DNA of 64,000 nt from Candidatus Altimarinota bacterium (lineage in GTDB: Bacteria > Patescibacteriota > Gracilibacteria > JAUYGZ01): the NCBI GenBank assembly GCA_029233985.1, contig JARGOK010000001.1:681096-745095 (forward strand), read 5' to 3'. The position numbers were made by a program, and so were the translations under genes. A model generated the notes under the pieces. That model was not told where the DNA came from and searched no databases. It worked only from the letters and a program-made list of their open reading frames with translations. Each line of letters starts with the position of its first letter. The first letter of the stretch is position 1. This document shows positions 22,778 through 44,728 of this stretch, one piece after another.

Positions 22778-23431
22778 ATGGAAAATGTTGCCCTCAATGT
22801 ACAACCTCGAAAATTAGAAGATGACGCTCGAAGTATTCGAAAATTGAACCTTATCCCGGCTGTTGTCTACGGATCTGGATCTAAAAACCAGCATCTTCAA
22901 ATGGACTACCAAACCTTTCGAAGAGCCTTCGAAAAGGCTACCTATAGTACAATCATGGATATCACTATCGAAGGTGGCGAAACTCTCCATGTTTTGGTTC
23001 ATGATGTGCAATACCATCCTGTTTCTGATGACATCGTTCATGTTGATTTCTACAAGGTTGATATGAAGAAGAAGGTTACAACTCATTTGGCCCTGGACTT
23101 CACTGGTGTTTCTCAAGCGGTGAAAGAAGGAAATGTTCTCAACACCTCGAAACAAGAACTTCAAATCTCATGTCTTCCTGGAGACCTCATTCATAATATT
23201 GAAATCGATATTTCTGTCCTCGAGAAAGTAGGTGACAGTATCCAAGTATCTGATGTTCCTGCTCCAAAGGGTATTGAGATACTTGATGCTCCTGAGGATA
23301 CTATTATTAGTGTAGTAGAACCTCGAATTGCAGAAGAAACTGAAACAGAAGGGACTCTAGATACTGAAGATGGAGAAGCACCTACAGAAGGTGAAGAGAA
23401 TGCACAAGATGATGAAAAGAAAGAAGAATAG
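22778..23431 (+). CDS. rplY: 50S ribosomal protein L25 (CTC/TL5 form) with acidic tail
   Basis: 217 residues, the two-domain general stress (CTC) form. N-terminal 5S rRNA-binding domain with ARSIRKLNLIPAVVYGSG and VHDVQYHPVSDDIVHVDFYK; C-terminal beta domain ending DTIISVVEPR. The last 35 residues are almost entirely Glu, Asp, Thr and Gly and end in DDEKKEE. Binds 5S rRNA in the central protuberance. Own promoter; terminator hairpin 30 bases downstream. The acidic tail recalls those of S16 and KhpA. Confidence 0.95.
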   Translation: MENVALNVQPRKLEDDARSIRKLNLIPAVVYGSGSKNQHLQMDYQTFRRAFEKATYSTIMDITIEGGETLHVLVHDVQYHPVSDDIVHVDFYKVDMKKKVTTHLALDFTGVSQAVKEGNVLNTSKQELQISCLPGDLIHNIEIDISVLEKVGDSIQVSDVPAPKGIEILDAPEDTIISVVEPRIAEETETEGTLDTEDGEAPTEGEENAQDDEKKEE

Positions 23432-27013: not shown

Positions 27014-27475
27014 ATGTACAGTCTAAATAAAGTGCAGCTCATTGGAAACCTCACTCGTGACCCAGAAGTGAAACAAATCCCAAGTGGTCAAATGGTATGC
27101 ACACTTGGTATCGCGACAAACCGATCTTGGAAAGATCAGTCTGGAAACAAGCAAGATGCGACAGAATTTCACAATATTGTGTGCTGGGGAAAACTCGCAG
27201 AAATTGCAGGACAATATATCAAAAAAGGAACCAAAGTATATTTTGAAGGACGACTTCAAACACGAAGTTGGGATGACAAAGAAACAGGAAAAAAACAATA
27301 CAAAACAGAAATTGTTGCTGAAAATATGATCATCCTGACCCCAAAAGGAATGACTGAGAGTGGACAAAACTTTGGCGGAGGAATTCAAGAAAGCTCCCCT
27401 GCTCCCGCTGCAGAATCAAGCTTTACTCCAGCTCCAGCAGAAGACAAGATTTCAGTCGAAGATTTGCCATTTTAA
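27014..27475 (+). CDS. ssb: Single-stranded DNA-binding protein
   Basis: 153 residues. OB fold at 1-105 with the family start [40 protein letters not shown] and the [10 protein letters not shown] strand. A Gly/Pro/Ala-rich linker leads to the acidic tip EDLPF, the conserved partner-binding tail. Coats ssDNA in replication, repair and uptake. Single gene with promoter and a strong terminator. It borders the unusual TGTC/GACA-rich stretch. Confidence 0.97.
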
Positions 27476-29251: not shown

Positions 29252-31624
29252 ATGCTCAAGTTTTGGGATCACCGGGGAGTGTTGGGGATCAATGCTCGAA
29301 ATTTACTTTATATCAAGCCTCTCAATAAAAAGGCTCAGATAAAGTTTGCCGATGACAAAATGAGGACAAAACAATACTTGTCTGCTCGTAGAATCAGCAC
29401 GGCGCGGTTGTTGGGTAAAATCACCTCTGAAACAGAGCTTTTAAATTTTCAATGGGACTCCCTTCCTCAAGATTTTGTTCTAAAACCGAACGCTGGATTC
29501 GGTGGAGAGGGGATTGTTGTTATCAAAAACCGTGAAGAAGGAGGATGGGTAACAGTAAAAGGAGAATTTTTTTCCCATGAAGACATGGTGGAGCATGTGA
29601 CTGATGTCCTAGATGGTCGTTATTCTATCACCAATAGTCCCGACACCGTGTTTTTTGAAGAACGGCTCATGTGTCATCATGATATGAGTGAATTGGGTAA
29701 ATTTGGACTCCCAGATATTCGGATCATTGTCTACAATCTCGTTCCAGTCATGGCAATGGTTCGAGTGCCGACAGAGGAGAGCAAAGGAAAAGCGAACGTC
29801 CATATGGGAGGCCTTGCACTAGGAATAGATCTCGCAAAAGGAGAAGTAACGCATATTTGCCATCATAATAAAATTATTAAATCCCACCCTGATTTTGGAA
29901 AATTACAGGGATTGAAGATTCCTTTTTGGGATGAAGTCCTCCTCTTGGCTACTCAAATCCAACAACTGATCACACTAGGATATTTAGCTGTAGATATTGT
30001 CATCGATGAAAACCTTGGGCCAGCTCTCTTGGAAATCAATGCTCGAGCAGGATTGAATGTGCAAATTGCCAATCTCGCACCTCTAAGAGACCGATTGGAC
30101 CGAGTGGCTGGAGTAAAGGTCCAAACTGCTGAAAAAGGTGTACGGCTAGCACAAGACCTTTTTGGGAATAAGATTGAGCGGAGTATTCAAGAAATTAGTG
30201 GAAAGAGTGTCATTGGAATGGAAGAAGAAATAATTTTGAATTTGAAAAATGGAACTCAGCCTGTTTTGGCAAAGATGAACCCGACGATGACAAAAAATTA
30301 TCTCGACAGCACTCTCTTTCAAAAAATAGTTGGACAAGGAAATGACGTTGAGAACCTGACATTGGGATATAGCCTGGCAGGAGAACGTGGTAAAACGATG
30401 TTTCACTCTCTTGAGATGAAGGAAGGAGGACATCAAGTTATTTTAGGGAAAAAAGCCCTCTCCAACTTCTTTTTGGATGTCACAAGAAGTAATGAAGAAA
30501 AGAAGATTCCGAGTATTGACCATGTGCCAGAAGAAAAACCTCAAAAAAAGATTGATTCTGTAATGGACAGGCTGATCAAGATCGATAATCAATTGGCTGA
30601 TTGGGATAGAGCACTTGGACTAGTCTCTTATCTGAGACCTGAGAACTTGGATGAGGAAAAAAAGCGATTCTTTTCATCACGCGAATACCAGCCACAATTT
30701 CGTTATAAAAGCCCAGATGATGGCCTGATTAATGTTCGCTCGAAACTTCAGAATCTAGCGATCCCTCAAAAAAGACCTATTGGTGTTCTTCTAGAACAAA
30801 AACGACAGGAGCTGATCAATAAATCCTCTCTTATCCAGGTGATCGGTGATGATGATCATTTCCCAAAACAGTCACGAATGGCCCTTGGATTTCCTCCTGA
30901 GGATGTGATTTCTGCAGCTCTAGAAGATTTAGCGAGAATACAAGAACCTCCTCAGCGAGAAAAAAATATTTCTTCGGAACAGCTGGCTGAGCGTATGCAA
31001 GCCTACTTGAAGAAAAAAGGCCTGTATAACTGGGAGGTGAAACTCAAGCAAGGGATCGTCTCTCGTTGTGTCTTGGGAAAGAACAACAGACTACTAGTAA
31101 AGTCTGGTGAAATGTTTTCGGATTATGATCTCCAAAAACTGATTGCTCATGAAATAGAGACTCACATTTACTGCACTGAGAATGGGAAACAACAACCGTT
31201 TCAAATTTTTCGAAGGGGGACTGCAGGGTATCTAAAAACACAGGAAGGACTGGCCGTGTATCACCAAAGTGAAGTGGTGGATGGTGGTGTACGAAATGCC
31301 GTTATCGGACTAAATGCAGTAGTATGGGCGCAAACGATGAGCTTTCGAGAAATCTATAACAAGGGGCTTGAGTACTTGGACCAGAATGATGCTTGGAAGC
31401 TAGCTGTGAAGGTCAAGCGAGGAATGAATGACACCAGTAAACCCGGAGGATTTACAAAGAATGCTTTGTATTATTGGGGCTACCGAGAAATCGCTCAGTA
31501 CTTGGAAAATGATGGAGAGTACCGAGACCTTTTCTTGGGAAAGTTTGAACTGTCTCAACTTGACCTGATTCGTCAAATGAAAGACCTGGTAAAACCTCAA
31601 ATACTTCCCGAGAAAATGTCTTAG
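29252..31624 (+). CDS. Three-domain fusion: ATP-grasp ligase, degenerate retropepsin-like, DUF1704 (QEGLA) metallopeptidase
   Basis: 790 residues. Residues 1-300 are an ATP-grasp domain of the sugar-transfer/alpha-L-glutamate ligase group: FVLKPNAGFGGEGIVVI is the ATP-binding loop and ALLEINARAGLN (258-269) the Mg-binding end. Residues 316-414 align with RimB-type retropepsin-like proteases (start VIGMEEEIIL; end VILGKKALSNFFLDVTRS), but the catalytic D-T-G is N-P-T (343-345), so that site should be dead. Residues 430-785 are DUF1704, with HEIETH (633-638) and TQEGLAVY (663-670), the HExxxH metal site and QEGLA motif of the MATCAP-type carboxypeptidases. No signal peptide or TM; cytoplasmic. 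One chain thus has ligase and peptidase active sites. RimK follows 67 bases downstream. Confidence 0.85.
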   Translation: MLKFWDHRGVLGINARNLLYIKPLNKKAQIKFADDKMRTKQYLSARRISTARLLGKITSETELLNFQWDSLPQDFVLKPNAGFGGEGIVVIKNREEGGWVTVKGEFFSHEDMVEHVTDVLDGRYSITNSPDTVFFEERLMCHHDMSELGKFGLPDIRIIVYNLVPVMAMVRVPTEESKGKANVHMGGLALGIDLAKGEVTHICHHNKIIKSHPDFGKLQGLKIPFWDEVLLLATQIQQLITLGYLAVDIVIDENLGPALLEINARAGLNVQIANLAPLRDRLDRVAGVKVQTAEKGVRLAQDLFGNKIERSIQEISGKSVIGMEEEIILNLKNGTQPVLAKMNPTMTKNYLDSTLFQKIVGQGNDVENLTLGYSLAGERGKTMFHSLEMKEGGHQVILGKKALSNFFLDVTRSNEEKKIPSIDHVPEEKPQKKIDSVMDRLIKIDNQLADWDRALGLVSYLRPENLDEEKKRFFSSREYQPQFRYKSPDDGLINVRSKLQNLAIPQKRPIGVLLEQKRQELINKSSLIQVIGDDDHFPKQSRMALGFPPEDVISAALEDLARIQEPPQREKNISSEQLAERMQAYLKKKGLYNWEVKLKQGIVSRCVLGKNNRLLVKSGEMFSDYDLQKLIAHEIETHIYCTENGKQQPFQIFRRGTAGYLKTQEGLAVYHQSEVVDGGVRNAVIGLNAVVWAQTMSFREIYNKGLEYLDQNDAWKLAVKVKRGMNDTSKPGGFTKNALYYWGYREIAQYLENDGEYRDLFLGKFELSQLDLIRQMKDLVKPQILPEKMS

Positions 31625-31691: not shown

Positions 31692-32618
31692 ATGAATATT
31701 GGGATTATTTCATTTCGCGCCCTAAATAAGCGGTTTTCTTACGAAGAAAAACGACTCAAAGAAGAGGCTATAAAAAAGGGGCATAAAGTCCACTTGATGA
31801 GATACCAACGATGTATGATGACCTTTGAAGGACATGGAACTTTGGGGATCCGGTACGGAAAGAGGCCCTTTCCAGAAGTTGACCTTATTATCCCCAGAGC
31901 ATCTGTATTGACGAATGCACCACTGAGAACTTCTGTAGTAGAACACCTCCAACTGATGGGATTACCCATGTTGAATGAATACAATGCGATCTTGAGAGCT
32001 AAAAACAAACTCCAAACCCTCCAAATCCTGAGCCATTATGAAGTTCCCGTGGTGAAAACTGCTGTGGTAAACAATAGTAAATACCTGAAGCAAGCGACGC
32101 GCTACATCGGAACCTTTCCTATTATCATGAAAACAACCTATGGATCGTATGGGAATGGAGTGGCTATAGTGGAGAGTCAGCGTTCAGTGAAGTCGACCTA
32201 TGGTATCTTGTCTGACAGTGTTGGAACAAAAAACATCATTCTTTTGCAAGAGTATATTGCTGAGTCTGAAGGAAAAGATATTCGGCTTTTTGTGGTAAAC
32301 GGTGAAGTCATCGCGACGATGCAACGATCTGCTGAAGATGGAGATTTCCGTTCAAACGTGGGTCAAGGTGGATCTGGCATGGGGTATACACCGACCGAAG
32401 AAGAGATTCATATGGCAGTAAAAGCAACGAAAGCCCTCGGATTAGAAGTTTCTGGAGTGGATATTATCCAAACGAAGAATGGCCCTGCCATCATGGAAGT
32501 GAATGCTAATCCTGGATTTAAAGAGTTAGAGGAGATTTCAGGTGTCAATGTTGCTGGCAAAATTATTGAATATTCCGAGAAATTTGCTCAAGAGTATGTA
32601 GCAGGGAGTATTGTGTAA
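31692..32618 (+). CDS. rimK: RimK-family ATP-grasp alpha-L-glutamate ligase
   Basis: 308 residues, the usual RimK length. N-terminal domain MNIGIISFRALNKRFSYEEK with VDLIIPRASV; central and C-terminal ATP-grasp with FPIIMKTTYGSYGNGVAIVE (ATP loop), LLQEYIAESEGKDIRLFVVN, the NVGQGGSG loop and the metal-binding end IMEVNANPGFKELE. RimK ligates glutamate to the C-terminus of ribosomal protein S6 in E. coli, and relatives make other amino-acid ligations. The actual substrate here is unknown. It follows the fusion gene on the same strand without an obvious promoter or terminator between, so the two probably form one transcript and one pathway. Confidence 0.9.
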   Translation: MNIGIISFRALNKRFSYEEKRLKEEAIKKGHKVHLMRYQRCMMTFEGHGTLGIRYGKRPFPEVDLIIPRASVLTNAPLRTSVVEHLQLMGLPMLNEYNAILRAKNKLQTLQILSHYEVPVVKTAVVNNSKYLKQATRYIGTFPIIMKTTYGSYGNGVAIVESQRSVKSTYGILSDSVGTKNIILLQEYIAESEGKDIRLFVVNGEVIATMQRSAEDGDFRSNVGQGGSGMGYTPTEEEIHMAVKATKALGLEVSGVDIIQTKNGPAIMEVNANPGFKELEEISGVNVAGKIIEYSEKFAQEYVAGSIV

Positions 32619-32782: not shown

Positions 32783-33739
32783 ATGAAAAAAATTGATAAA
32801 CAAATTGATAAACAAGGGGCTACAGAACATAATGAGGCTAAGCAGAATTTATCTCCGGACGAATTGAATGATCAGGAGCTCACAAATCTGAATTCTCAAA
32901 CTAAAATCTCTCTCCATCAACTTTTTTGCTCACAGCAATCTTTGGAAAGTGTTCATCGACGTATTTTTGAAAACGTTTCATCTCATGGTGTCATTATAAA
33001 CGGAGAGCGAGTTGCTGATATTTGCCCTGAAGAACCCAATCATCTACATCTCCTTAGAGAGGTATACCCTTTCATTGCCGCTGCTCTTCCTCAAGGCACC
33101 TCGTTTAGTTTCCTTGCAGATGGCGCAGACAGTGACGTCTTCATGGCCAATATGCCGGATGATGGTTACCAAGTTATTAAAATATATCATAATAGAAAAC
33201 TCAGTATTGAGCTCCTGCAGCAATATTTTCAATTTACAAACAAGGTAAAAGAAGAAATCTCAAAGTACCCTAACCAAACAATATCTCTGCCTTCTAGCTC
33301 AGATTTTGAAGGAGGAAAATACCATCTACGATTTGAAATAAGTACTGGAAGTGCCTCGTCAATTCATGGTCTTGAATCCGTAATAGACAAGATGGACTAC
33401 CCTGAAATACGCCTCACGGATCTGCGTAAAAAGAGTGACCTTCTCGTATCCATATCTCCATTTGTTGCCGGAGAAGCACTTGTAGAAACCACTCACAACC
33501 GAGAAGTTGTTGCATATGATATTCTTGAAGGAAAAGAATATCATGTGTTTCACGATGTTTCATTCTTTAGCAACGTCTTTTCGAAGATTACCGATTGGAT
33601 CAAGGAGAGATTTTCATGTGAAGGAGTCCAAATTGGTGATGTGAATGCCAAATTTGTTTTGAATTTGAAAAAAAAAGAACTCATTGTGGTTATTACAGAT
33701 CTTTGCCCAAGATTAGAACATTTTCGACTCCAGCCTTAA
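32783..33739 (+). CDS. Hypothetical protein, possibly a divergent protein-kinase-fold member
   Basis: 318 residues, no clear family. After a polar N-terminus (1-80), FLADGADSDVFMANMPD and GYQVIKIYHNRK resemble a glycine-loop plus VIK lysine pair of the protein-kinase/aminoglycoside-phosphotransferase fold. Near the C-terminus IGDVNAKFVLNLKKKELIVV followed by ITDLCP resembles a catalytic-loop and metal-binding segment (D-x4-N ... D-L) with changed spacing. If so it is a small atypical kinase or pseudokinase. The assignment rests on pattern only. It has its own promoter pair, 164 bases after rimK, and may or may not belong to that locus. Confidence 0.5.
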   Translation: MKKIDKQIDKQGATEHNEAKQNLSPDELNDQELTNLNSQTKISLHQLFCSQQSLESVHRRIFENVSSHGVIINGERVADICPEEPNHLHLLREVYPFIAAALPQGTSFSFLADGADSDVFMANMPDDGYQVIKIYHNRKLSIELLQQYFQFTNKVKEEISKYPNQTISLPSSSDFEGGKYHLRFEISTGSASSIHGLESVIDKMDYPEIRLTDLRKKSDLLVSISPFVAGEALVETTHNREVVAYDILEGKEYHVFHDVSFFSNVFSKITDWIKERFSCEGVQIGDVNAKFVLNLKKKELIVVITDLCPRLEHFRLQP

Positions 33740-36339: not shown

Positions 36340-38718
36340 TCATTCCGCTTTGACGGTAAAGCTTCTTTTTTCTACAAATTCACCTTTCTTGGCCTGAAGA
36401 GTATGCTTTCCCAGTGTCGGTTGTATAAATATTATTTTTCCGTATCCAACCCCTACTTGATTCAGTGTCCACTCGACATCTTGATTGGACTTAAGGATGA
36501 TTTCTTGGAGCTCGAGAGGGACGCCAGACTGCAGATAAAAGGTTTCGTTGGGTTGGGGTTTGAAAATTTGGAGTTGGGAGCTCGGAGTTGGGAATTCGGA
36601 GCTTGATCCAGAGAGTTCAGATTTTTTTTGTTCTTTTTCTAGACCCCGAACTCCTGACTCCCGACACCTTTCTATTGAGAAATCTTTGAAATCAAATAAT
36701 TTTGCAATCTTTGTGATCTCTGTCGTGTCGATACCCTGAATGAAAAAATCCTCGAGACAAAAGTGTCCTTCCTCGAGTAAGGAATACCATTCTTGGTCGG
36801 GATTTTGATAAATAAGGTCTGAATGTGAGCAGGAGGCATTGAGACATTTTTCTGTTTGGACGAGATTCATCTCACGAAGGAAAGGCTTCACTACTTTTCC
36901 GGCTTGCGATACGTACCCTAAATCGATAGCTGCTTCAACACTTCTATTCCAAATAGGTCCCGCACCAGTTATCCCATCGACATCGATCATGGGACTATTG
37001 TCATTGTTTCCAACCCAGGTAGCAACAACGAGATCTGGATGGTAGCCAAAGGTCCAGTTGTCGTGAAAGTTCTTGGTGGTTCCAGTCTTTACGGCGAATG
37101 GTATTGTAGTGCTCAGGACAGAATTGACTCCGAAAGAGCGGCGGCGGTTGAGAGGATTGGAGAGGGTTTGAAAAAGGTGAAAGTAGGGTGAGGACTGTGA
37201 GAACCTTGAAGACTGTGGAGACCTTGGAGAGGGTTGAGATATGAGGTGAGATGTGATTGGGATTCCGTTGTTGGCAAGGGTGGCGTATGCGTCAGCGACC
37301 GAACGCATGGGGAGGTCTGGAGATCCAAGAGCGAGACTAAAGCCATAGTGCTCCGCAGGGTATTGGAAGGGGAGCCCAAGTGAACTGAGAAAGTCGTAAA
37401 TAGGCTGGAGACCGAGGTGTTCGAGAAGGCGGACGGAGGCAATGTTGAAGGAATTTGCGAGGGCTATTTTTAGCGGCATCACTCCTCCTTCACGGAGTCC
37501 GTAATTCAAAGGCCGGTAGTTTTCATCTGATCGAGAAGTCTGGAAGTCTTTTTCGAGGTCGACAATGAGCTGATCCGGATGAGCACCTTGCATGAAGGCG
37601 AAGAGGTAGAGAAAAGGCTTGAGGGCGGAGCCCATTTGTCGTCTTTGAGTAATAACATTTACCTGTCCATCGATGTCCGAAGCGTGGAAATCTTTGCTCC
37701 CTTGCCAGGCCAAAATATCTCCGGTAGAAGGCTGGAGAATGTAGGCCGCTCCGTTGGTGACATGCTTGTCGGCGAGTCGATCGAGAGAGAGATTGATGAG
37801 GTCTTTGACCTTGGACTGGAGTGCTGAGTCGACAGTGGAATGAATGGTGATCGATGTCGACTCGTCAGACGACAGCTGCCTTAGAGTGGCTGTTACATGC
37901 GGAAACTTGTTTGTTCCCTGGAATGTCGACAAGGTCATCTTGGGGATGGAAAGGGGAGTCGGCTGGGGTCTGTAAGGTACGTCCAAGGGAGGTAAAGAAA
38001 CCTCGTCTTCGATTGGTGTGGAATCCAATTCACGAAGGCGAGGATTCGTTTCCTTTCCCCCCAGGTAAATCACACTTGCGATCTGATCGAACCGATCCTG
38101 AAAATATTTCTCATTGGTTTTGATTACTCCTGGCGAACGAATAATAGCGAGCAAAGTGACCACTTCGGATGATGTCAGAGTCTCCAAATGAGACTTGTCG
38201 AAATATGATTTCATCGCGGCTTTTATCCCGTAGTTTCGATGACCAAAATAAATATTGTCGAGGTAAGCACGAAGAATATCTTCTTTGGAAACGAAGAGAG
38301 AAGAGTAGAATGCTAGATTTGCTTCGCGGATTTTTTGAAGAATCGTACGGGAAGCATGAGGGAAGTATTTATTCTTGAGGTACTGCTCGGTGATAGTGCT
38401 CCCGCCCGACACCACTCTTTGGGCGCTGACATTGTCTCTGAACGCACGGATCTTCGCAAAGGTGTCAATGCCCATATGAGAATGAAAACGTTCGTCTTCG
38501 ACAGAGATAAAAGCTGCTGCGATGTTTTCTGGAATGGGTTCGTCGTCTCCCAGTGGGATCTGGAGTCCGTTTGGCGAGGGAAGGTGAGTGATCAGCTGAT
38601 CATAACGGTCGTATATCTTGAATTCCCCCACGTTCTTTTGCACTGGAAAAAAGACTGGTAGGAGGACGAAGAGGTGCCAGGAGAACAAAACAATGATGAC
38701 AGAGATGATCTTTTTCAT
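36340..38718 (-). CDS. pbpC: Penicillin-binding protein 1C
   Basis: 792 residues. N-terminal TM (KKIISVIIVLFSWHLFVLLP), a glycosyltransferase 51 domain (VEDERFHSHMGID with catalytic Glu; GGSTITEQYLKNKYF), a transpeptidase domain with SALK (Ser364, Lys367), SFN (423-425) and KTG (544-546), and a C-terminal PBP1C beta domain. All catalytic residues are intact. Polymerises and crosslinks peptidoglycan outside the membrane. It follows the alpha-2-macroglobulin gene by 61 bases, the same pairing as E. coli yfhM-pbpC. Two low-complexity inserts (SPRSPQSSRFSQSSPYF near residue 508; a Ser/Pro/Gln stretch near 700) look like translated spacer repeats. Confidence 0.93.
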   Translation of the reverse strand: MKKIISVIIVLFSWHLFVLLPVFFPVQKNVGEFKIYDRYDQLITHLPSPNGLQIPLGDDEPIPENIAAAFISVEDERFHSHMGIDTFAKIRAFRDNVSAQRVVSGGSTITEQYLKNKYFPHASRTILQKIREANLAFYSSLFVSKEDILRAYLDNIYFGHRNYGIKAAMKSYFDKSHLETLTSSEVVTLLAIIRSPGVIKTNEKYFQDRFDQIASVIYLGGKETNPRLRELDSTPIEDEVSLPPLDVPYRPQPTPLSIPKMTLSTFQGTNKFPHVTATLRQLSSDESTSITIHSTVDSALQSKVKDLINLSLDRLADKHVTNGAAYILQPSTGDILAWQGSKDFHASDIDGQVNVITQRRQMGSALKPFLYLFAFMQGAHPDQLIVDLEKDFQTSRSDENYRPLNYGLREGGVMPLKIALANSFNIASVRLLEHLGLQPIYDFLSSLGLPFQYPAEHYGFSLALGSPDLPMRSVADAYATLANNGIPITSHLISQPSPRSPQSSRFSQSSPYFHLFQTLSNPLNRRRSFGVNSVLSTTIPFAVKTGTTKNFHDNWTFGYHPDLVVATWVGNNDNSPMIDVDGITGAGPIWNRSVEAAIDLGYVSQAGKVVKPFLREMNLVQTEKCLNASCSHSDLIYQNPDQEWYSLLEEGHFCLEDFFIQGIDTTEITKIAKLFDFKDFSIERCRESGVRGLEKEQKKSELSGSSSEFPTPSSQLQIFKPQPNETFYLQSGVPLELQEIILKSNQDVEWTLNQVGVGYGKIIFIQPTLGKHTLQAKKGEFVEKRSFTVKAE

Positions 38719-38779
38719 AATGATTGGTCAGAACCCAACAGCTGGCTCCATGTCTTCAAACTGGAGCCAGCATATTGAT

Positions 38780-41700
38780 TTATTCTTTGATGGTCACTTT
38801 TCTAAACTCTGTATGCGCCTCGATCTCTGGTCGATACATTGGATACACCGACACAGGTGGTTCGAGGAATGTTCCAGGTATTTCTGCCCGAACATAGTAG
38901 GTGACTTCTTGGTCGGTATCATACCCATAACGAGCAGAAGCAAAGAATCGGTCAGCTCTCCTTTCTCGGTAATTGTACGGCCAACTCCACTGATCTTCTC
39001 CAACTTGGGCCTGATCTGTTTTGAATCGAGGATTGAGTAGTCGGAATCCTGCTGGAAGGAAAGACTCGAGAGCGAGCTCGCGGTGTTGATCATCGTAACT
39101 GACCTTTACTTTTACAAGATAGGTTTCTCCGAGAGTGAATGTCGTTCCGGAGATGGGTGCGAGATCTCTGGCTTCTCGGGTCCACCAGTCGCCCTCTTCT
39201 TCTTTGACCATGCCGAGTTGGTGGTACTGACGAGAGACCGTAACCCCTTTGTCTTGCTGAGCAGTGATGGTGCTAGGGTTTTTTGGTATTTGGGCTATCA
39301 CGAGATCTGAATAGATCCGCTGCGAAGTGTCACCTTTCACCTCCAGCTGAAGCTTCAACTGATTTGATGACCCAGCTTCTGAAAGAGGGAAGCTGATTTT
39401 TTGGAAAGGATTTCGATCGCTGAGTCGAACGGTTCCTGTTTTCGATCCAAGCTGGTAACTGACGACGGCTTGACTTTTTGTCGAGTTCTCGATACCTGCA
39501 TCGATGTATTGGGTGAAGGCGATGAAAGACTGGATCTTTGCCTGAGTCGAGTGATAGTAGCTGGTGAGATCGAGAGCGTAGAGATCCTTGATGATGACTT
39601 TCATCTCATCTTGTCGCTCATTGGTAAGGAGCAGCAGCTGGGCGAAAAGAGCCTTGTCAGCTGTCCTATTCCAGTACCAGTTTCGCTTGGAATCTCCTGC
39701 TTTATCGAGATCGATACTCCTGATCAGATCAGAAATTTCCTGCTGATGATTCGTCACACTTTTCTTTGAGAGCGCTAACGCATAAACGATTTTCTCGTGT
39801 GTGCTGAGCTGATCGACACGGTTTTTCAGCAGCATATGAGCACTGGAAAAGATTGGGGTCTCGATCTTTGAGAGGGCATGAAGCTCGTGAACAAGCTGAC
39901 TAAGGCGGTCCTCTGGAATGTTTCCAGAGAGACCATTCACTTGGTTTTCGATAAACGATTGAGCCTTCAAAAGAATATCAGAAGGGATGTCTACACCCAG
40001 CTCTTGCATTTGGATGAGTGCCAATACAACATATGGCGTGACGTGAGCGTCACTCTCTCGACCTCCAGGCCAGTAAGCAAATCCTCCGTCATCGGTCTGC
40101 ATTTTTTGGAAGCGTTCGATCCCAGCACTGAGGTTTTTTTCGAGTGTGCTCTGACTGATTCCTATATCAAGCAAGGTGTTGAATTTTTTTACAATGGCGT
40201 TTGGTAAGGTGGAGCTAATGGTCTGCTCGATACAACCGTACGGATAGACCAAGAGACTATGCATTGTTTTTTCAACACCGATAAGAAGGGTATTGCTCAA
40301 GCGCAGTTCGACCAGTGACTGCTCACGATCAACATCATCTATAAAGGTGAGAGGAATATTTGAGGACACCTGAAAATCGTCTTGGACATGGAGCTGGTTT
40401 GAAATCAATGGACTCTTGGCAACAGGAACGGTCTTTTGGATACGGTCTCCGCCACTGGCACCATGCGCAGCGGTGATAGTGTACTGAACCTCACTGAGGT
40501 ACTCATCGGCGACCTTTACTCTCCAAGTGATAAACTCTCGTTCACCAGCAGGGATTGTAATGGTTTGCCGACTGTTATCAGGAGTGCTGAGACCAGCTGA
40601 ATCGAGCGAGACGGCGATTTCTTTGGATTCTTCGCTGTTATTGAAGACCGTTGCACCGACACGCATCTCGTCTCCTGCACGCACCATGAGAGGGAACGTT
40701 TCTTCGACAACGATGTCTTGGCGGACCCTGACGCTTTCTTCTACTGCTCCAAAGAAATTGGATTTGGAATGTCCGATAGTGATGACTCGGAAATCTCCGA
40801 TGTTATCAGGGAGGTCGAATGAAAGTGTTGCCTTTCCGTTAGAATCGGTAACGACTGAGCCGGCGTAGAAGGCGGTGTTTTTGAAGTCGGTTCGGGTCAT
40901 GATGCTGTCTCCACCCTCCTTGGCCCCTGAACCTCCGATGATTCCTTTTCGCGCAAAGTAGAGGTGCTTTAGCATAGCAACATTGGTGAGAGCCGTGTGA
41001 GTCTGAAAGACGATCTTTCGAAAAAACTTTGGTAAAATGTCGAGATCGATATTTCCCATGATGGCGATGAGAGCTTCATCGACAACTGCGACGGAGAGCT
41101 CAGACCGCACCGGATTTCCTCTCTTGTCTCTCGCTTGAAAACTCAAAGTGACTTTGTCTCTTGGAGCGTATTCATTTTGATCAGAAGAAGCTGTGATATT
41201 GAGTTTTTTATCAGTCTTGTCGACGACGACCTCGGTATACCCAACTCTGTACTCCGGCTGAACCTCAGAATCAAAACTCGGCTTGAAGGCGATCACTGAG
41301 ATGTAAGCATTTGGCATAAAGCTGTCATCCACCGTGTACTCTTTGATCAAGGTATTCCCCTTGATGTCGACGACTTCTTTGCGAACGACTTCTTTCTTTT
41401 CGATCGTAATGAGGGCTTTTCCATCAGCAAAGGGGAGTCGGACGAAAAGTCGAGCTTTGTCACCGAGATGGTAGCTGACTTTTTCAGTGACAACTTTGAT
41501 TTTGTTATCAGCGACGACTGGAGCGTTTGTTATCCCTCCAGGGTCATAGGCATAGACCTTGAGAATCTGAATATCACTCTCAGAATCTCCTTCATTGTTT
41601 CGGATAGACAGGCTGTATTCTCCGTCTTTTGGAAGCGTGAAAGGATGTGTGAGCAGTCCGTTTTCTTCGCTGAAGTTTTTTAGATTTACCACAATTGTTT

Positions 41701-44700
41701 CTACTTCTTCATCTTCGAAATCGAGCTGAGGAACAATCTTTCCCCCCACTTGTTTTTGATGTTTGGTGCTGTATTTGCGATGCGTGAGGGCGACCAGGTA
41801 TTGGTCATCATTTGCTTCACGCCATTTCATCTCGGGTTTGATCGAAAGGGTGATCGCTTCTCCTTGAGGAACGAATTGTTTGTCGACCTCGAGCTCGACC
41901 TTGTTGCTTGGATTGTACTGACGAAGGCTTTTGGGAATTTTTGCGATAACAGATCCCGAACTAGCGACTCGTTGACTAGAAGGGTCATCAACGGCAACTT
42001 CGACAATGTAGCGATAGTCGCTCCAACGCGTCTCGTGAGTGATAGGAATTTGGATGCTGGCTTTTCCTGATGCATCAAGAGTACCTCTTCCTTCGGTCAC
42101 ATAGTCTTTACTTGGTTCATACCAACACCCGTAGTAGCAATCGTCCCAGTAACTGCTGTCGTAGTAGTACTGTTTGAAAACTTGGTAGTGGTATGGCGCA
42201 TCAGGAACAAGTCCACCAGCGTAGTAGCTCGCCATGACATCAGCCTTGAGTTTTAGATCCTTTTTGTACGTCTTGTAACTGTATCCCCAACGGGTTTTTT
42301 CTTGGGTTATTTTTGGATCGACAAATAGGCTGTTTTCGAGGTCTGGAGACTCAACTGAGACCTCTACCTTGAAAGTCGGTTTTTTGAATTCTTCCACGCT
42401 GAATTCTCCCCCCATGACATACTCCATCCCCATATCGTCTTCTCCACGAAGTTCGAGTCGGTAGATTCCTAGAGCTGCGTTTTCTGCTAGCTCTATGTCT
42501 TCGAGATAGGAACCAAATTCATTGAGCTGAATAGTTTTTTGAAAGAGGGTTTCATAGTTGGCGTCTCTCAGAATGAGTTCAAAATCCTTGCTTTGTGGAA
42601 TGCGAAGCTGGTCCGCATTTTCTCTAACAATGGCTTTGAAATGAACCGTTTCAGATGGTTTGTAGAGCTTTCGGTCAGTAAAGAGATGAGCACTGTAGCG
42701 CGAACCGGTTCCCCAGCTTTGCGGCTCGAAACCAAAATTCCAACCAGCAATCCCACTATTCCATTTGCTGACGACATAAGTCAGGTGGTTGTCATTGCTG
42801 GCGGTGATAGCTAATGAATTGTGCTCAGGAGCATCGTACCAGCTCTGAAAGGCTTCGAGGTAATCATCATTACTAAAGTCAGCCTGAAGAAACCCCTGAT
42901 CATCAGTTTTTCCGATCTCGCCTAGAGATTTATAGACTGGTTTTTCGAGCGGTGAAAAATACGTGTAGTCAGTTTGTCGAGTGCTAGAGTTCCAGCGGCT
43001 TTCGGAAGCCGTGAACTCATTGTGGTATGCCTTTAAAGTCAGACCAGCAATACCTTCTCCAGTTTGGATATCATTTACCCAAAAGAGAGCCTTACCCGAT
43101 TCCGAGAGCTTCATGCTGATATGTGCATCAACTATGGAGAAAAACAGAGGCGATATCACAGGTGCTTTCTCTGCAAGTTTCCTTTCTCCTTGAAAAGCAA
43201 AAGTCAGAAAATAGAGTCCTGACCGACCAGGAGAACCGATCATCTTGGAGATGTCGACAGGTGTTCTGACACTATCTGAGTTGAGAGTGATTTCCTGGTT
43301 GAAACATTCTTCAACTGGAAGCTGATCAATTCCTTCGAGCAAGAACTGATCTGAGAAGTCGTAATCGTTTCGTCGAGAGACGACTTGTTCGATTTTGGCG
43401 TATTCTTCGAGGGCGACACGGCAGAGCTTCACTGTTGGATTCTCCACCTCGTAATGAACGATATCGATAGTCGGCAGTGCTGTATCCATAAAAATAGTTT
43501 GGGATTCTTGTTGCTTGAATCCGAGGTAGGTGAGCTCTCCTGTCTCAACGAGTAAAGATTTTTCTGAGAAGGATTGACCGTAGACATCTGTACCTGACCC
43601 GAGAGTGACCTGGTAGCTGAGCTTGTCTTTGAGATTGATCGGCACCTCTGCTCGGTCTGAATAGAGAACTATTTCTTCCGCAACAATATCAGCTGATGGT
43701 GATACCGAAAAGAGGAGAGCAAGTCGTTCTTTTTGAAGAGTACGGTACTGGATCAGGTCATCTCCTTTTCGGACTTTTTGCGTATCGAAGAATGGAGACT
43801 TAAAGTCTACTTCGATGACGGTTTTAAATTCAAGGTCTGGATTGAAGAGTTCTTTGAGTGACAAACTGGCCTCAGAAGGAGTGATTTTGCTTTCCGCAAA
43901 GACCTGCAGGCTATCGGCATCTTCCTGAAGACTGACAAAGAAGCAACTATTTTCTGCGCCCCAATCTGCATCGACAGTGAAAGTGATCCCTTCTTTGTTT
44001 TGTTCGCTTATGTCAATATTTCGTATACGGAACTGTGACCAGTCGAGGTTATTCCTTTCAAAGGAGCCGTAAAGACAGTCACCATACCAGTAATTGTTGT
44101 CTTCTTGGCTAACCGGCATCTCCGTTGGAATTCCTACGCTAAAGACATGTAAATTTTCTGACCCAGAAATAGTGTTTCCATTCAGCGTGAGTCGGTATTC
44201 TGGATTATTCAGCTGACTGTTTTCGGTCTGATTTACGCTCTCGATGAAAACTTCTTGTTCGCGGAAAATCCAAGTAGGGGATTGGTCCAGAGATTTAAAA
44301 GTCGTGACACCTGAAACCTCCGGCTTTACGAGGGCTTCTCGATCTTCTACCTGAGAACGGAGGTTATTGTAGCTGTTTGGATCAAGTGTCACCGTATCTC
44401 CATCACTCAGACTCAACTGAATCTGATAACTAAATCCAGAATTCATAAAACTCTCGGGAATAACTGATTCTGCTGATCGGAGCTCTCCATTGACTCGGAG
44501 TGACTGGGCGAGAGCAGTTTGATTCATTTCTTGAGTTGAATAGATTGTCAGAGGAAGCTGAGTAAACTCCTGTTGATGATGTGGGAAAACGACACCAGTC
44601 TCTATGCCATACAGCATCCCTGAAAAGAGTCTTTCGAGAATAATGGCGGCCACCAAGACGACTGCACCAATACCAAGAGGTAGGAGCATTTTTTTCCAAC

Positions 44701-44728
44701 GAGGAATCGGAACAGTTGTTTCTTCCAT
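38780..44728 (-). CDS. Bacterial alpha-2-macroglobulin with thioester
   Basis: 1982 residues. A single N-terminal TM helix (LPLGIGAVVLVAAIILERLF) anchors it, and the rest is extracytoplasmic. The MG2-type region is near 650-760 (RKLYKPSETVHFKAIVRE), with an A2M_N2 region (APRDKVTLSFQARDKRGN, SVAVVDEAL), the A2M core (FDLPDNIGDFRVITIGHSKS), and a thioester domain with YPYGCIEQ, Cys1499, the reactive C-x-E-Q. The end is beta-rich with LESFLPAGFRLLNP. Such proteins trap proteases covalently and in E. coli (YfhM) are paired with PBP1C to protect or report wall damage. Acquisition of this pair by a CPR cell is notable. Five or more aromatic-rich segments near residue 860 (YYYDSSYWDDCYYGCWYEP) are unusual. 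Confidence 0.92.
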   Translation of the reverse strand: MEETTVPIPRWKKMLLPLGIGAVVLVAAIILERLFSGMLYGIETGVVFPHHQQEFTQLPLTIYSTQEMNQTALAQSLRVNGELRSAESVIPESFMNSGFSYQIQLSLSDGDTVTLDPNSYNNLRSQVEDREALVKPEVSGVTTFKSLDQSPTWIFREQEVFIESVNQTENSQLNNPEYRLTLNGNTISGSENLHVFSVGIPTEMPVSQEDNNYWYGDCLYGSFERNNLDWSQFRIRNIDISEQNKEGITFTVDADWGAENSCFFVSLQEDADSLQVFAESKITPSEASLSLKELFNPDLEFKTVIEVDFKSPFFDTQKVRKGDDLIQYRTLQKERLALLFSVSPSADIVAEEIVLYSDRAEVPINLKDKLSYQVTLGSGTDVYGQSFSEKSLLVETGELTYLGFKQQESQTIFMDTALPTIDIVHYEVENPTVKLCRVALEEYAKIEQVVSRRNDYDFSDQFLLEGIDQLPVEECFNQEITLNSDSVRTPVDISKMIGSPGRSGLYFLTFAFQGERKLAEKAPVISPLFFSIVDAHISMKLSESGKALFWVNDIQTGEGIAGLTLKAYHNEFTASESRWNSSTRQTDYTYFSPLEKPVYKSLGEIGKTDDQGFLQADFSNDDYLEAFQSWYDAPEHNSLAITASNDNHLTYVVSKWNSGIAGWNFGFEPQSWGTGSRYSAHLFTDRKLYKPSETVHFKAIVRENADQLRIPQSKDFELILRDANYETLFQKTIQLNEFGSYLEDIELAENAALGIYRLELRGEDDMGMEYVMGGEFSVEEFKKPTFKVEVSVESPDLENSLFVDPKITQEKTRWGYSYKTYKKDLKLKADVMASYYAGGLVPDAPYHYQVFKQYYYDSSYWDDCYYGCWYEPSKDYVTEGRGTLDASGKASIQIPITHETRWSDYRYIVEVAVDDPSSQRVASSGSVIAKIPKSLRQYNPSNKVELEVDKQFVPQGEAITLSIKPEMKWREANDDQYLVALTHRKYSTKHQKQVGGKIVPQLDFEDEEVETIVVNLKNFSEENGLLTHPFTLPKDGEYSLSIRNNEGDSESDIQILKVYAYDPGGITNAPVVADNKIKVVTEKVSYHLGDKARLFVRLPFADGKALITIEKKEVVRKEVVDIKGNTLIKEYTVDDSFMPNAYISVIAFKPSFDSEVQPEYRVGYTEVVVDKTDKKLNITASSDQNEYAPRDKVTLSFQARDKRGNPVRSELSVAVVDEALIAIMGNIDLDILPKFFRKIVFQTHTALTNVAMLKHLYFARKGIIGGSGAKEGGDSIMTRTDFKNTAFYAGSVVTDSNGKATLSFDLPDNIGDFRVITIGHSKSNFFGAVEESVRVRQDIVVEETFPLMVRAGDEMRVGATVFNNSEESKEIAVSLDSAGLSTPDNSRQTITIPAGEREFITWRVKVADEYLSEVQYTITAAHGASGGDRIQKTVPVAKSPLISNQLHVQDDFQVSSNIPLTFIDDVDREQSLVELRLSNTLLIGVEKTMHSLLVYPYGCIEQTISSTLPNAIVKKFNTLLDIGISQSTLEKNLSAGIERFQKMQTDDGGFAYWPGGRESDAHVTPYVVLALIQMQELGVDIPSDILLKAQSFIENQVNGLSGNIPEDRLSQLVHELHALSKIETPIFSSAHMLLKNRVDQLSTHEKIVYALALSKKSVTNHQQEISDLIRSIDLDKAGDSKRNWYWNRTADKALFAQLLLLTNERQDEMKVIIKDLYALDLTSYYHSTQAKIQSFIAFTQYIDAGIENSTKSQAVVSYQLGSKTGTVRLSDRNPFQKISFPLSEAGSSNQLKLQLEVKGDTSQRIYSDLVIAQIPKNPSTITAQQDKGVTVSRQYHQLGMVKEEEGDWWTREARDLAPISGTTFTLGETYLVKVKVSYDDQHRELALESFLPAGFRLLNPRFKTDQAQVGEDQWSWPYNYRERRADRFFASARYGYDTDQEVTYYVRAEIPGTFLEPPVSVYPMYRPEIEAHTEFRKVTIKE

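What the first reader, a model, noticed from the sequence alone, without database searches (positions are those of the whole stretch)
29252..31624. ATP-grasp, inactivated retropepsin-like and DUF1704 metallopeptidase in one chain
One 790-residue protein joins an ATP-dependent ligase domain to a DUF1704 domain with the HExxxH and QEGLA motifs known from tubulin-type carboxypeptidases (MATCAP). Between them lies a domain whose ends match RimB/retropepsin-like proteases (VIGMEEE... and VILGKKALSNFFLDV) but whose catalytic Asp-Thr-Gly is Asn-Pro-Thr. The protein therefore couples a bond-forming and a bond-cutting active site through a dead protease domain that may now only bind substrate. ATP-grasp genes near QEGLA genes are known to me; this triple fusion is not.
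Basis: partly seen in the sequence, partly recalled or inferred. Interest (0 to 1): 0.9.

Follow-up and report, generated by a model that had tools for sequence, protein, structure and literature searches.

The report
Ligase–dead-protease–carboxypeptidase triple fusion enzyme
In a large group of tiny-genome bacteria, one protein joins an enzyme that probably adds amino acids (most likely glutamate) to an enzyme that cuts amino acids off a tail, linked by a protease domain that lost its active site, apparently repeatedly where the cutting enzyme had been recruited to take over its job.

Summary
The 790-aa ORF at 29252-31624 joins a RimK/RloC-type ATP-grasp ligase, a retropepsin-fold domain and a MATCAP (DUF1704/QEGLA) metallopeptidase. 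AlphaFold plus Foldseek confirm the middle domain: its best solved matches are a DUF785 (RimB-family) protein and RloA2. Its Asp-Thr-Gly is Asn-Pro-Thr. It is not a one-off: at least one part is found in 203 of 288 sampled genomes of the class, and the full fusion in most of these, including TGA-recoded lineages. Elsewhere in the phylum the usual form is a two-domain ATP-grasp-retropepsin protein with intact DTGA, flap and poly-Glu-binding arginines. MATCAP is then absent, a separate gene, or an overlapping downstream gene. An ATP-grasp tree rejects a single origin of the fusion (AU p=0.0005). Both fused lineages, and one unfused lineage with overlapping MATCAP, lost the retropepsin active site: D[TS]G is gone in 57 of 66 MATCAP-linked proteins and 0 of 65 unlinked. 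Best reading: a writer-eraser enzyme for short acidic (probably glutamate) chains, in which MATCAP replaced the retropepsin as eraser. The dead domain also lost the arginines that bind polyglutamate in RloA, so 'it now only binds substrate' is not favoured. No activity is shown.

The parts
29252..31624 (+). whole fusion gene, 790 aa
   Evidence: full-length homologues over most of the class
29297..30106 (+). ATP-grasp ligase domain (residues 16-285; ATPgrasp_ST / RimK-related / RloC-like); K78, D248, E261, N263 invariant
   Evidence: best solved ATP-grasp fold match is RimK 5zct
30203..30487 (+). retropepsin-fold pseudoprotease domain (about residues 318-412), flap deleted
30278..30286 (+). 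Asn-Pro-Thr (343-345) at the position of catalytic Asp-Thr-Gly
30665..31585 (+). MATCAP / DUF1704 / QEGLA metallopeptidase domain (residues 472-778)
   Evidence: Foldseek MATCAP 7z6s E 2.5e-13
31148..31165 (+). HExxxH metal-binding motif (633-638)
   Evidence: H633, E634 and H638 invariant in 80 homologues
31241..31255 (+). QEGLA motif (664-668) with third metal ligand E665
   Evidence: E665 invariant; motif role in TMCP/MATCAP from PMC10499314
31692..32618 (+). neighbouring RimK-like ATP-grasp gene 68 bp downstream; possible partner, kept only in the window's own family/order and in some bidomain loci

Best explanation
It is a self-contained writer-eraser enzyme. The N-terminal RimK/RloC-type ATP-grasp domain uses ATP to add amino acids, most likely L-glutamate, to a carboxyl end of a protein, peptide or metabolite. 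The C-terminal MATCAP metallocarboxypeptidase removes them one at a time. The middle domain descends from the RimB/RloA-type retropepsin that was the eraser in the two-domain ancestor; once MATCAP was recruited (adjacent gene, then fusion) it lost its catalytic Asp, flap and acid-chain-binding arginines but kept its fold, probably as spacer or activator of the ligase. Shown: architecture, fold, loss pattern, at least two fusions. Inferred: glutamate as substrate, both activities, eraser replacement, role of the dead domain.
For: Architecture and folds. Active-site residues of both outer domains invariant in 80 homologues. The two-domain relatives keep K46, DTGA, flap, R114 and R137 equivalents, the residues that bind and cut polyglutamate in RloA (PMC12239564). 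Loss of D[TS]G: 57/66 MATCAP-linked vs 0/65 unlinked proteins, seen in two independent fusions (AU p=0.0005 against one clade on ATP-grasp; 0.03 on MATCAP) and in an unfused lineage with overlapping or adjacent MATCAP (NTGR/NTSR; L169, L170, L177, L190, L228). RloA D48N was an inactive control and RimB D31E shows no proteolysis. Human MATCAP paralogues (TMCPs) remove polyglutamate chains (PMC10499314). RimB also stimulates RimK by direct contact (PMC11957791), which gives a reason to keep a dead retropepsin next to a ligase. QEGLA lies in an operon with N-formylglutamate amidohydrolase and a glutathione-synthetase-like ATP-grasp in Aminobacter.
Against: No activity or substrate is shown. TIGR02291 and TIGR02421 scores are below their curated cut-offs. 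Three bidomain proteins with an overlapping MATCAP gene (L156, L167, L171), and L155 with MATCAP in the same gene cluster, keep DTGA, so replacement is not obligatory. Phylogenetically independent contrasts are few: about 3 concordant, 0 discordant, sign test p about 0.25. 'MATCAP absent' rests on a Pfam cut-off; a more sensitive profile finds distant MATCAP-like genes in at least two of those genomes (G503, G625). The best-known target of RimK, ribosomal protein S6, does not end in glutamates in this genome.
Confidence: 0.5

Rival explanations
1. Same chemistry, but the product is a small metabolite or cell-envelope peptide: the ligase makes a glutathione-like or wall-linked peptide and the carboxypeptidase trims or recycles it.
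For: QEGLA operon in Aminobacter with N-formylglutamate amidohydrolase and a glutathione-synthetase-like ATP-grasp; the rlo operon, whose RloC is an ATP-grasp protein, acts on envelope, osmotic and antibiotic traits; the Pfam family is named 'sugar-transfer associated'.
Against: The closest solved ATP-grasp fold is the poly-alpha-L-glutamate ligase RimK and the closest peptidase fold is a protein-tail carboxypeptidase; no envelope partner (RloB, PF14400) was found in the genome, but that search had no positive control.
Confidence: 0.27
2. The retropepsin decayed only because fusing a C-terminal domain disrupts the homodimer that a retropepsin needs; MATCAP did not replace it functionally.
For: All 58 fused proteins lost DTGA and nearly all the flap; retropepsins are obligate dimers (general knowledge).
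Against: An unfused lineage with merely adjacent MATCAP also lost the catalytic Asp, and bidomain proteins with a further long C-terminal region fused behind the retropepsin (L181, L182) keep DTGA, flap and arginines.
Confidence: 0.15
3. The middle domain still works as the substrate-binding clamp.
For: Fold retained; K at the D-2 position kept in 19 of 58 fused proteins, including the window.
Against: R114 and R137 equivalents kept in none of 58, flap missing; faster divergence than intact retropepsins at equal ATP-grasp distance (about 23-25 % vs 31 % identity).
Confidence: 0.1
4. Residues 316-414 are not a retropepsin and the resemblance is chance.
For: No Pfam hit for the window's own domain; no hit of the domain profile among solved sequences.
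Against: hhalign 99.6 % to DTGA-bearing relatives, confident model, DUF785/RloA/DDI1 as top folds.
Confidence: 0.02

Closest known systems
RloA-RloB-RloC operon of Pseudomonas (PMC12239564)
   Same: ATP-grasp protein and RimB-like retropepsin that cuts polyglutamate, genetically in one pathway
   Different: separate genes, active secreted retropepsin, inactive-transglutaminase membrane protein RloB, no MATCAP
RimB/RimK and the RimBK hybrid (PMC11957791)
   Same: poly-Glu ligase plus retropepsin, in RimBK within one chain; RimB stimulates RimK
   Different: RimB at the N-terminus of RimK, protease active, no MATCAP
TMCP1/TMCP2 (MATCAP; KIAA0895L/KIAA0895) tubulin carboxypeptidases (PMC10499314)
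   Same: MATCAP fold, HExxxH and E-G-L motifs; remove C-terminal residues and polyglutamate chains
   Different: eukaryotic, no ligase or retropepsin domain, microtubule-binding region
QEGLA (TIGR02421) operon with N-formylglutamate amidohydrolase and a glutathione-synthetase-like ATP-grasp (seen in Aminobacter)
   Same: same peptidase family linked to an ATP-grasp ligase
   Different: separate genes, a different kind of ATP-grasp, no retropepsin
Two-domain ATP-grasp-retropepsin proteins of other Patescibacteria (this work)
   Same: same first two domains in the same order
   Different: DTGA, flap and arginines mostly intact; MATCAP absent or a separate gene

Membership tests
ATPgrasp_ST / RimK-related (RloC-type) ligase | Pfam PF14397 above curated cut-off | tested here: met
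   208 bits vs 31.4
ATPgrasp_ST / RimK-related (RloC-type) ligase | NCBIfam TIGR02291 above curated cut-off | tested here: not met
   258 vs 314 bits; a distant relative, not an equivalog by that model
ATPgrasp_ST / RimK-related (RloC-type) ligase | glutamate ligase activity | not testable with these tools
   needs assay
MATCAP / TMCP metallocarboxypeptidase | PF08014 above cut-off | tested here: met
   141.5 vs 27 bits
MATCAP / TMCP metallocarboxypeptidase | HExxxH plus third ligand E in the E-G-L motif | tested here: met
   H633, E634, H638, E665 invariant in 80 sequences
MATCAP / TMCP metallocarboxypeptidase | MATCAP fold | tested here: met
   Foldseek 7z6s, E 2.5e-13, target TM 0.69
MATCAP / TMCP metallocarboxypeptidase | TIGR02421 QEGLA equivalog cut-off | tested here: not met
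   148 vs 339 bits
RimB/RloA retropepsin (active protease) | retropepsin fold | tested here: met
   Foldseek 2pma and 9g59 top, query TM 0.65-0.67
RimB/RloA retropepsin (active protease) | catalytic DTG(A) | tested here: not met
   NPTM in the window; 0 of 58 fused proteins keep D[TS]GA
RimB/RloA retropepsin (active protease) | flap | tested here: not met
   flap columns gapped in 57 of 58 fused proteins
RimB/RloA retropepsin (active protease) | poly-Glu-binding R114 and R137 | tested here: not met
   0 of 58 fused vs 42 of 43 in the no-MATCAP group
RimBK hybrid | RimB domain N-terminal to RimK | tested here: not met
   order is ligase-retropepsin-MATCAP

The most novel reading that the evidence does not exclude
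The MATCAP family began, or was early co-opted, as the eraser of bacterial poly- or oligo-glutamate tails written by RimK-like ligases. In this class of bacteria it took over from the retropepsin inside one reversible polyglutamylation enzyme, leaving a pseudoprotease. The deglutamylating activity of human TMCPs on tubulin would then be the older function of the family.
Probability: 0.35. Interest if true: 0.82.

Novelty: new variant of a known kind. Interest (0 to 1): 0.64.

Why it matters
It is a clear case of a pseudoprotease arising repeatedly when a second, unrelated hydrolase is recruited to the same ligase. It links the tubulin-tail carboxypeptidase family to bacterial glutamate ligases, so the original substrate of MATCAP enzymes becomes testable in a single protein. 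It also marks a conserved, unassigned enzyme of a hardly cultured bacterial class.

Tried and rejected
Chance ORF or frameshift join: rejected. Middle domain not a retropepsin: rejected. Fusion unique to this genome: rejected. Single origin of all fusions: rejected on the ATP-grasp tree, weaker on the MATCAP tree with long branches. Presence outside Patescibacteria: two records named Nitrospirota and Kiritimatiellales carry it, but their proteins are 65-75 % identical to Peregrini-/Peribacteria ones, so probably mislabelled bins; only the best 80 of 231 relatives were listed. Viral contigs: none. RimK neighbour as a constant partner: only in the window's own family/order and in some bidomain loci. 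Ribosomal protein S6 as target: its C-terminus here ends ...DDADLGL, not in Glu, so no support. Ribosomal protein L25 with an acidic tail near the gene: tails not conserved. RloB-like protein in the genome: none found, without a positive control. Literature searches aimed at this architecture returned nothing in the open-licence library; the Iyer 2009 amidoligase survey, which I recall discussing ATP-grasp/peptidase contexts, is not held, so earlier description there cannot be excluded.

Full report
Observation. The frame at 29252-31624 (+) encodes 790 residues without interruption. Pfam and NCBIfam place an ATP-grasp ligase (ATPgrasp_ST 16-285; nearest NCBIfam model TIGR02291, alpha-L-glutamate ligase-like) and a MATCAP/QEGLA peptidase (472-778) at the two ends; by sequence the only convincingly related solved proteins are human MATCAP/KIAA0895L. 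K78, D248, E261, N263 (ligase) and H633, E634, H638, E665 (peptidase) are invariant in 80 homologues, so both outer active sites look functional. That invariance is what the sequence shows; activity is inferred.

Middle domain. AlphaFold2 gives pLDDT 90 for the chain and about 94 for most of the middle domain, but pTM 0.54, so the relative placement of the domains is not determined. The domain folded alone (pLDDT 86.7, pTM 0.77) matches, in Foldseek order, 2pma (DUF785), RloA2 9g59, human DDI1 protease domain and RloA 9g58. The profile of the domain aligns with the retropepsin half of bidomain proteins at 99.6 % probability, and those bidomain proteins hit PF05618 above cut-off. So it is a retropepsin with Asn343-Pro-Thr in place of Asp-Thr-Gly. 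Published mutants at that Asp, RloA D48A and D48N and RimB D31E, are inactive.

Distribution. 203 of 288 genomes of the class have a match at E <= 1e-10. That count includes partial matches, but most listed rows run from about residue 5 to 787. TGA-recoded families carry the full fusion as well. Named relatives are Peregrini-, Peri- and Gracilibacteria. In a sample of 380 genomes of the phylum, other classes mostly carry a 430-515-aa ATP-grasp-retropepsin protein. Among 78 of those genomes searched with PF08014, 35 have a MATCAP; four of these are fusions (G498, G522, G537, G544) and 31 have it as a separate gene. In several loci it overlaps or directly follows the bidomain gene (L156, L167, L169, L170, L171, L177, L190, L228); in L155 a RimK-like gene lies between.

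Loss of the protease. I scored the catalytic motif in 131 proteins. For one of them (L168) the automatic alignment failed and I set the motif by hand from the earlier alignment. D[TS]G is lost in 57 of 66 proteins whose MATCAP is fused or directly adjacent, and in 0 of 65 others. D[TS]GA is lost in 75 of 88 proteins from genomes with MATCAP and in 1 of 43 without; that one, G551, belongs to a family whose other sampled members have MATCAP. Two genomes counted as 'without' carry a distant MATCAP-like gene under a more sensitive profile (G503, G625), so that second contrast is slightly softer than it looks. RloA residues K46, R114 and R137 were mapped by the DTG motif and by the 23-residue spacing of the two arginines, which holds in L186. 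K46 is kept in 19/58 fused vs 41/43 no-MATCAP proteins, R114 in 0/58 vs 42/43, R137 in 0/58 vs 42/43, and the flap is gone in 57/58, while the structural Gly and Leu of the ILG-x-x-x-L segment stay in 53 and 54 of 58. The pattern is loss of catalysis and of acid binding with retention of the scaffold.

History. On the ATP-grasp tree the fused proteins need at least two origins on supported branches: one for the class together with L173/L174, and one for L175/L176 inside the bidomain group (AU test against one clade p = 0.0005). The MATCAP tree is poorly resolved and has long branches, but points the same way (p = 0.03). In both fused groups the retropepsin lost DTGA and the flap. A third lineage lost the Asp with MATCAP adjacent but not fused (L169, L170, L177, L190, L228). 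The count of independent events is small (about three concordant contrasts, essentially none discordant, sign test not significant), so cause and effect remain an inference.

Mechanism. In Pseudomonas, RimK writes glutamates, RimB and RloA cut polyglutamate, and RimB also stimulates RimK through contact (PMC11957791, PMC12239564). Human and Tetrahymena MATCAP relatives (TMCPs) remove polyglutamate (PMC10499314). Put together, the fusion most simply is a writer-eraser pair in which MATCAP replaced the retropepsin as eraser and the retropepsin stayed as spacer or ligase activator. I put this at 0.5, and the specific claim that glutamate on proteins is the substrate at roughly 0.35. The rival with most weight is a small-molecule or envelope-peptide product.

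Versus known systems. Each part is known and ATP-grasp genes near QEGLA genes exist. The triple architecture was not found described in the papers I could search, and one likely earlier survey is not held. I therefore call it a new variant of a known kind.

Noticed in passing
L181:4411-7176 and L182:3212-5779: ATP-grasp-retropepsin (DTGA intact) extended by a further long C-terminal region, a second ATP-grasp in L181: another three-part architecture in other Patescibacteria.
   Followed up: partly
L193:5058-6483: A genome of a TGA-recoded family (G118) has an unfused RloC-like ATP-grasp gene overlapping an RloA3-like retropepsin gene with intact DTGA, and no full fusion was found; possibly a replacement by transfer.
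   Followed up: partly
31692-32618: Second RimK-type ATP-grasp gene 68 bp after the fusion gene, kept only in the nearest relatives.
   Followed up: partly
32783-33739: 318-aa ORF with no Pfam match and no homologue near related fusion genes.
   Followed up: no
36340-44728: Penicillin-binding-protein-like gene next to a 1982-aa alpha-2-macroglobulin-like gene with a GCIEQ thioester motif (read from the sequence, no family search), like the pbpC-yfhM pair.
   Followed up: no
27014-27475 and L235:2180-2695: Two single-strand-binding protein genes in the genome; the second follows the gene for ribosomal protein S6.
   Followed up: no
22778-23431: Ribosomal protein L25 with a long acidic tail ending in Glu-Glu; L25 lies near the fusion gene in 35 of 160 loci, usually on the opposite strand.
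   Followed up: partly
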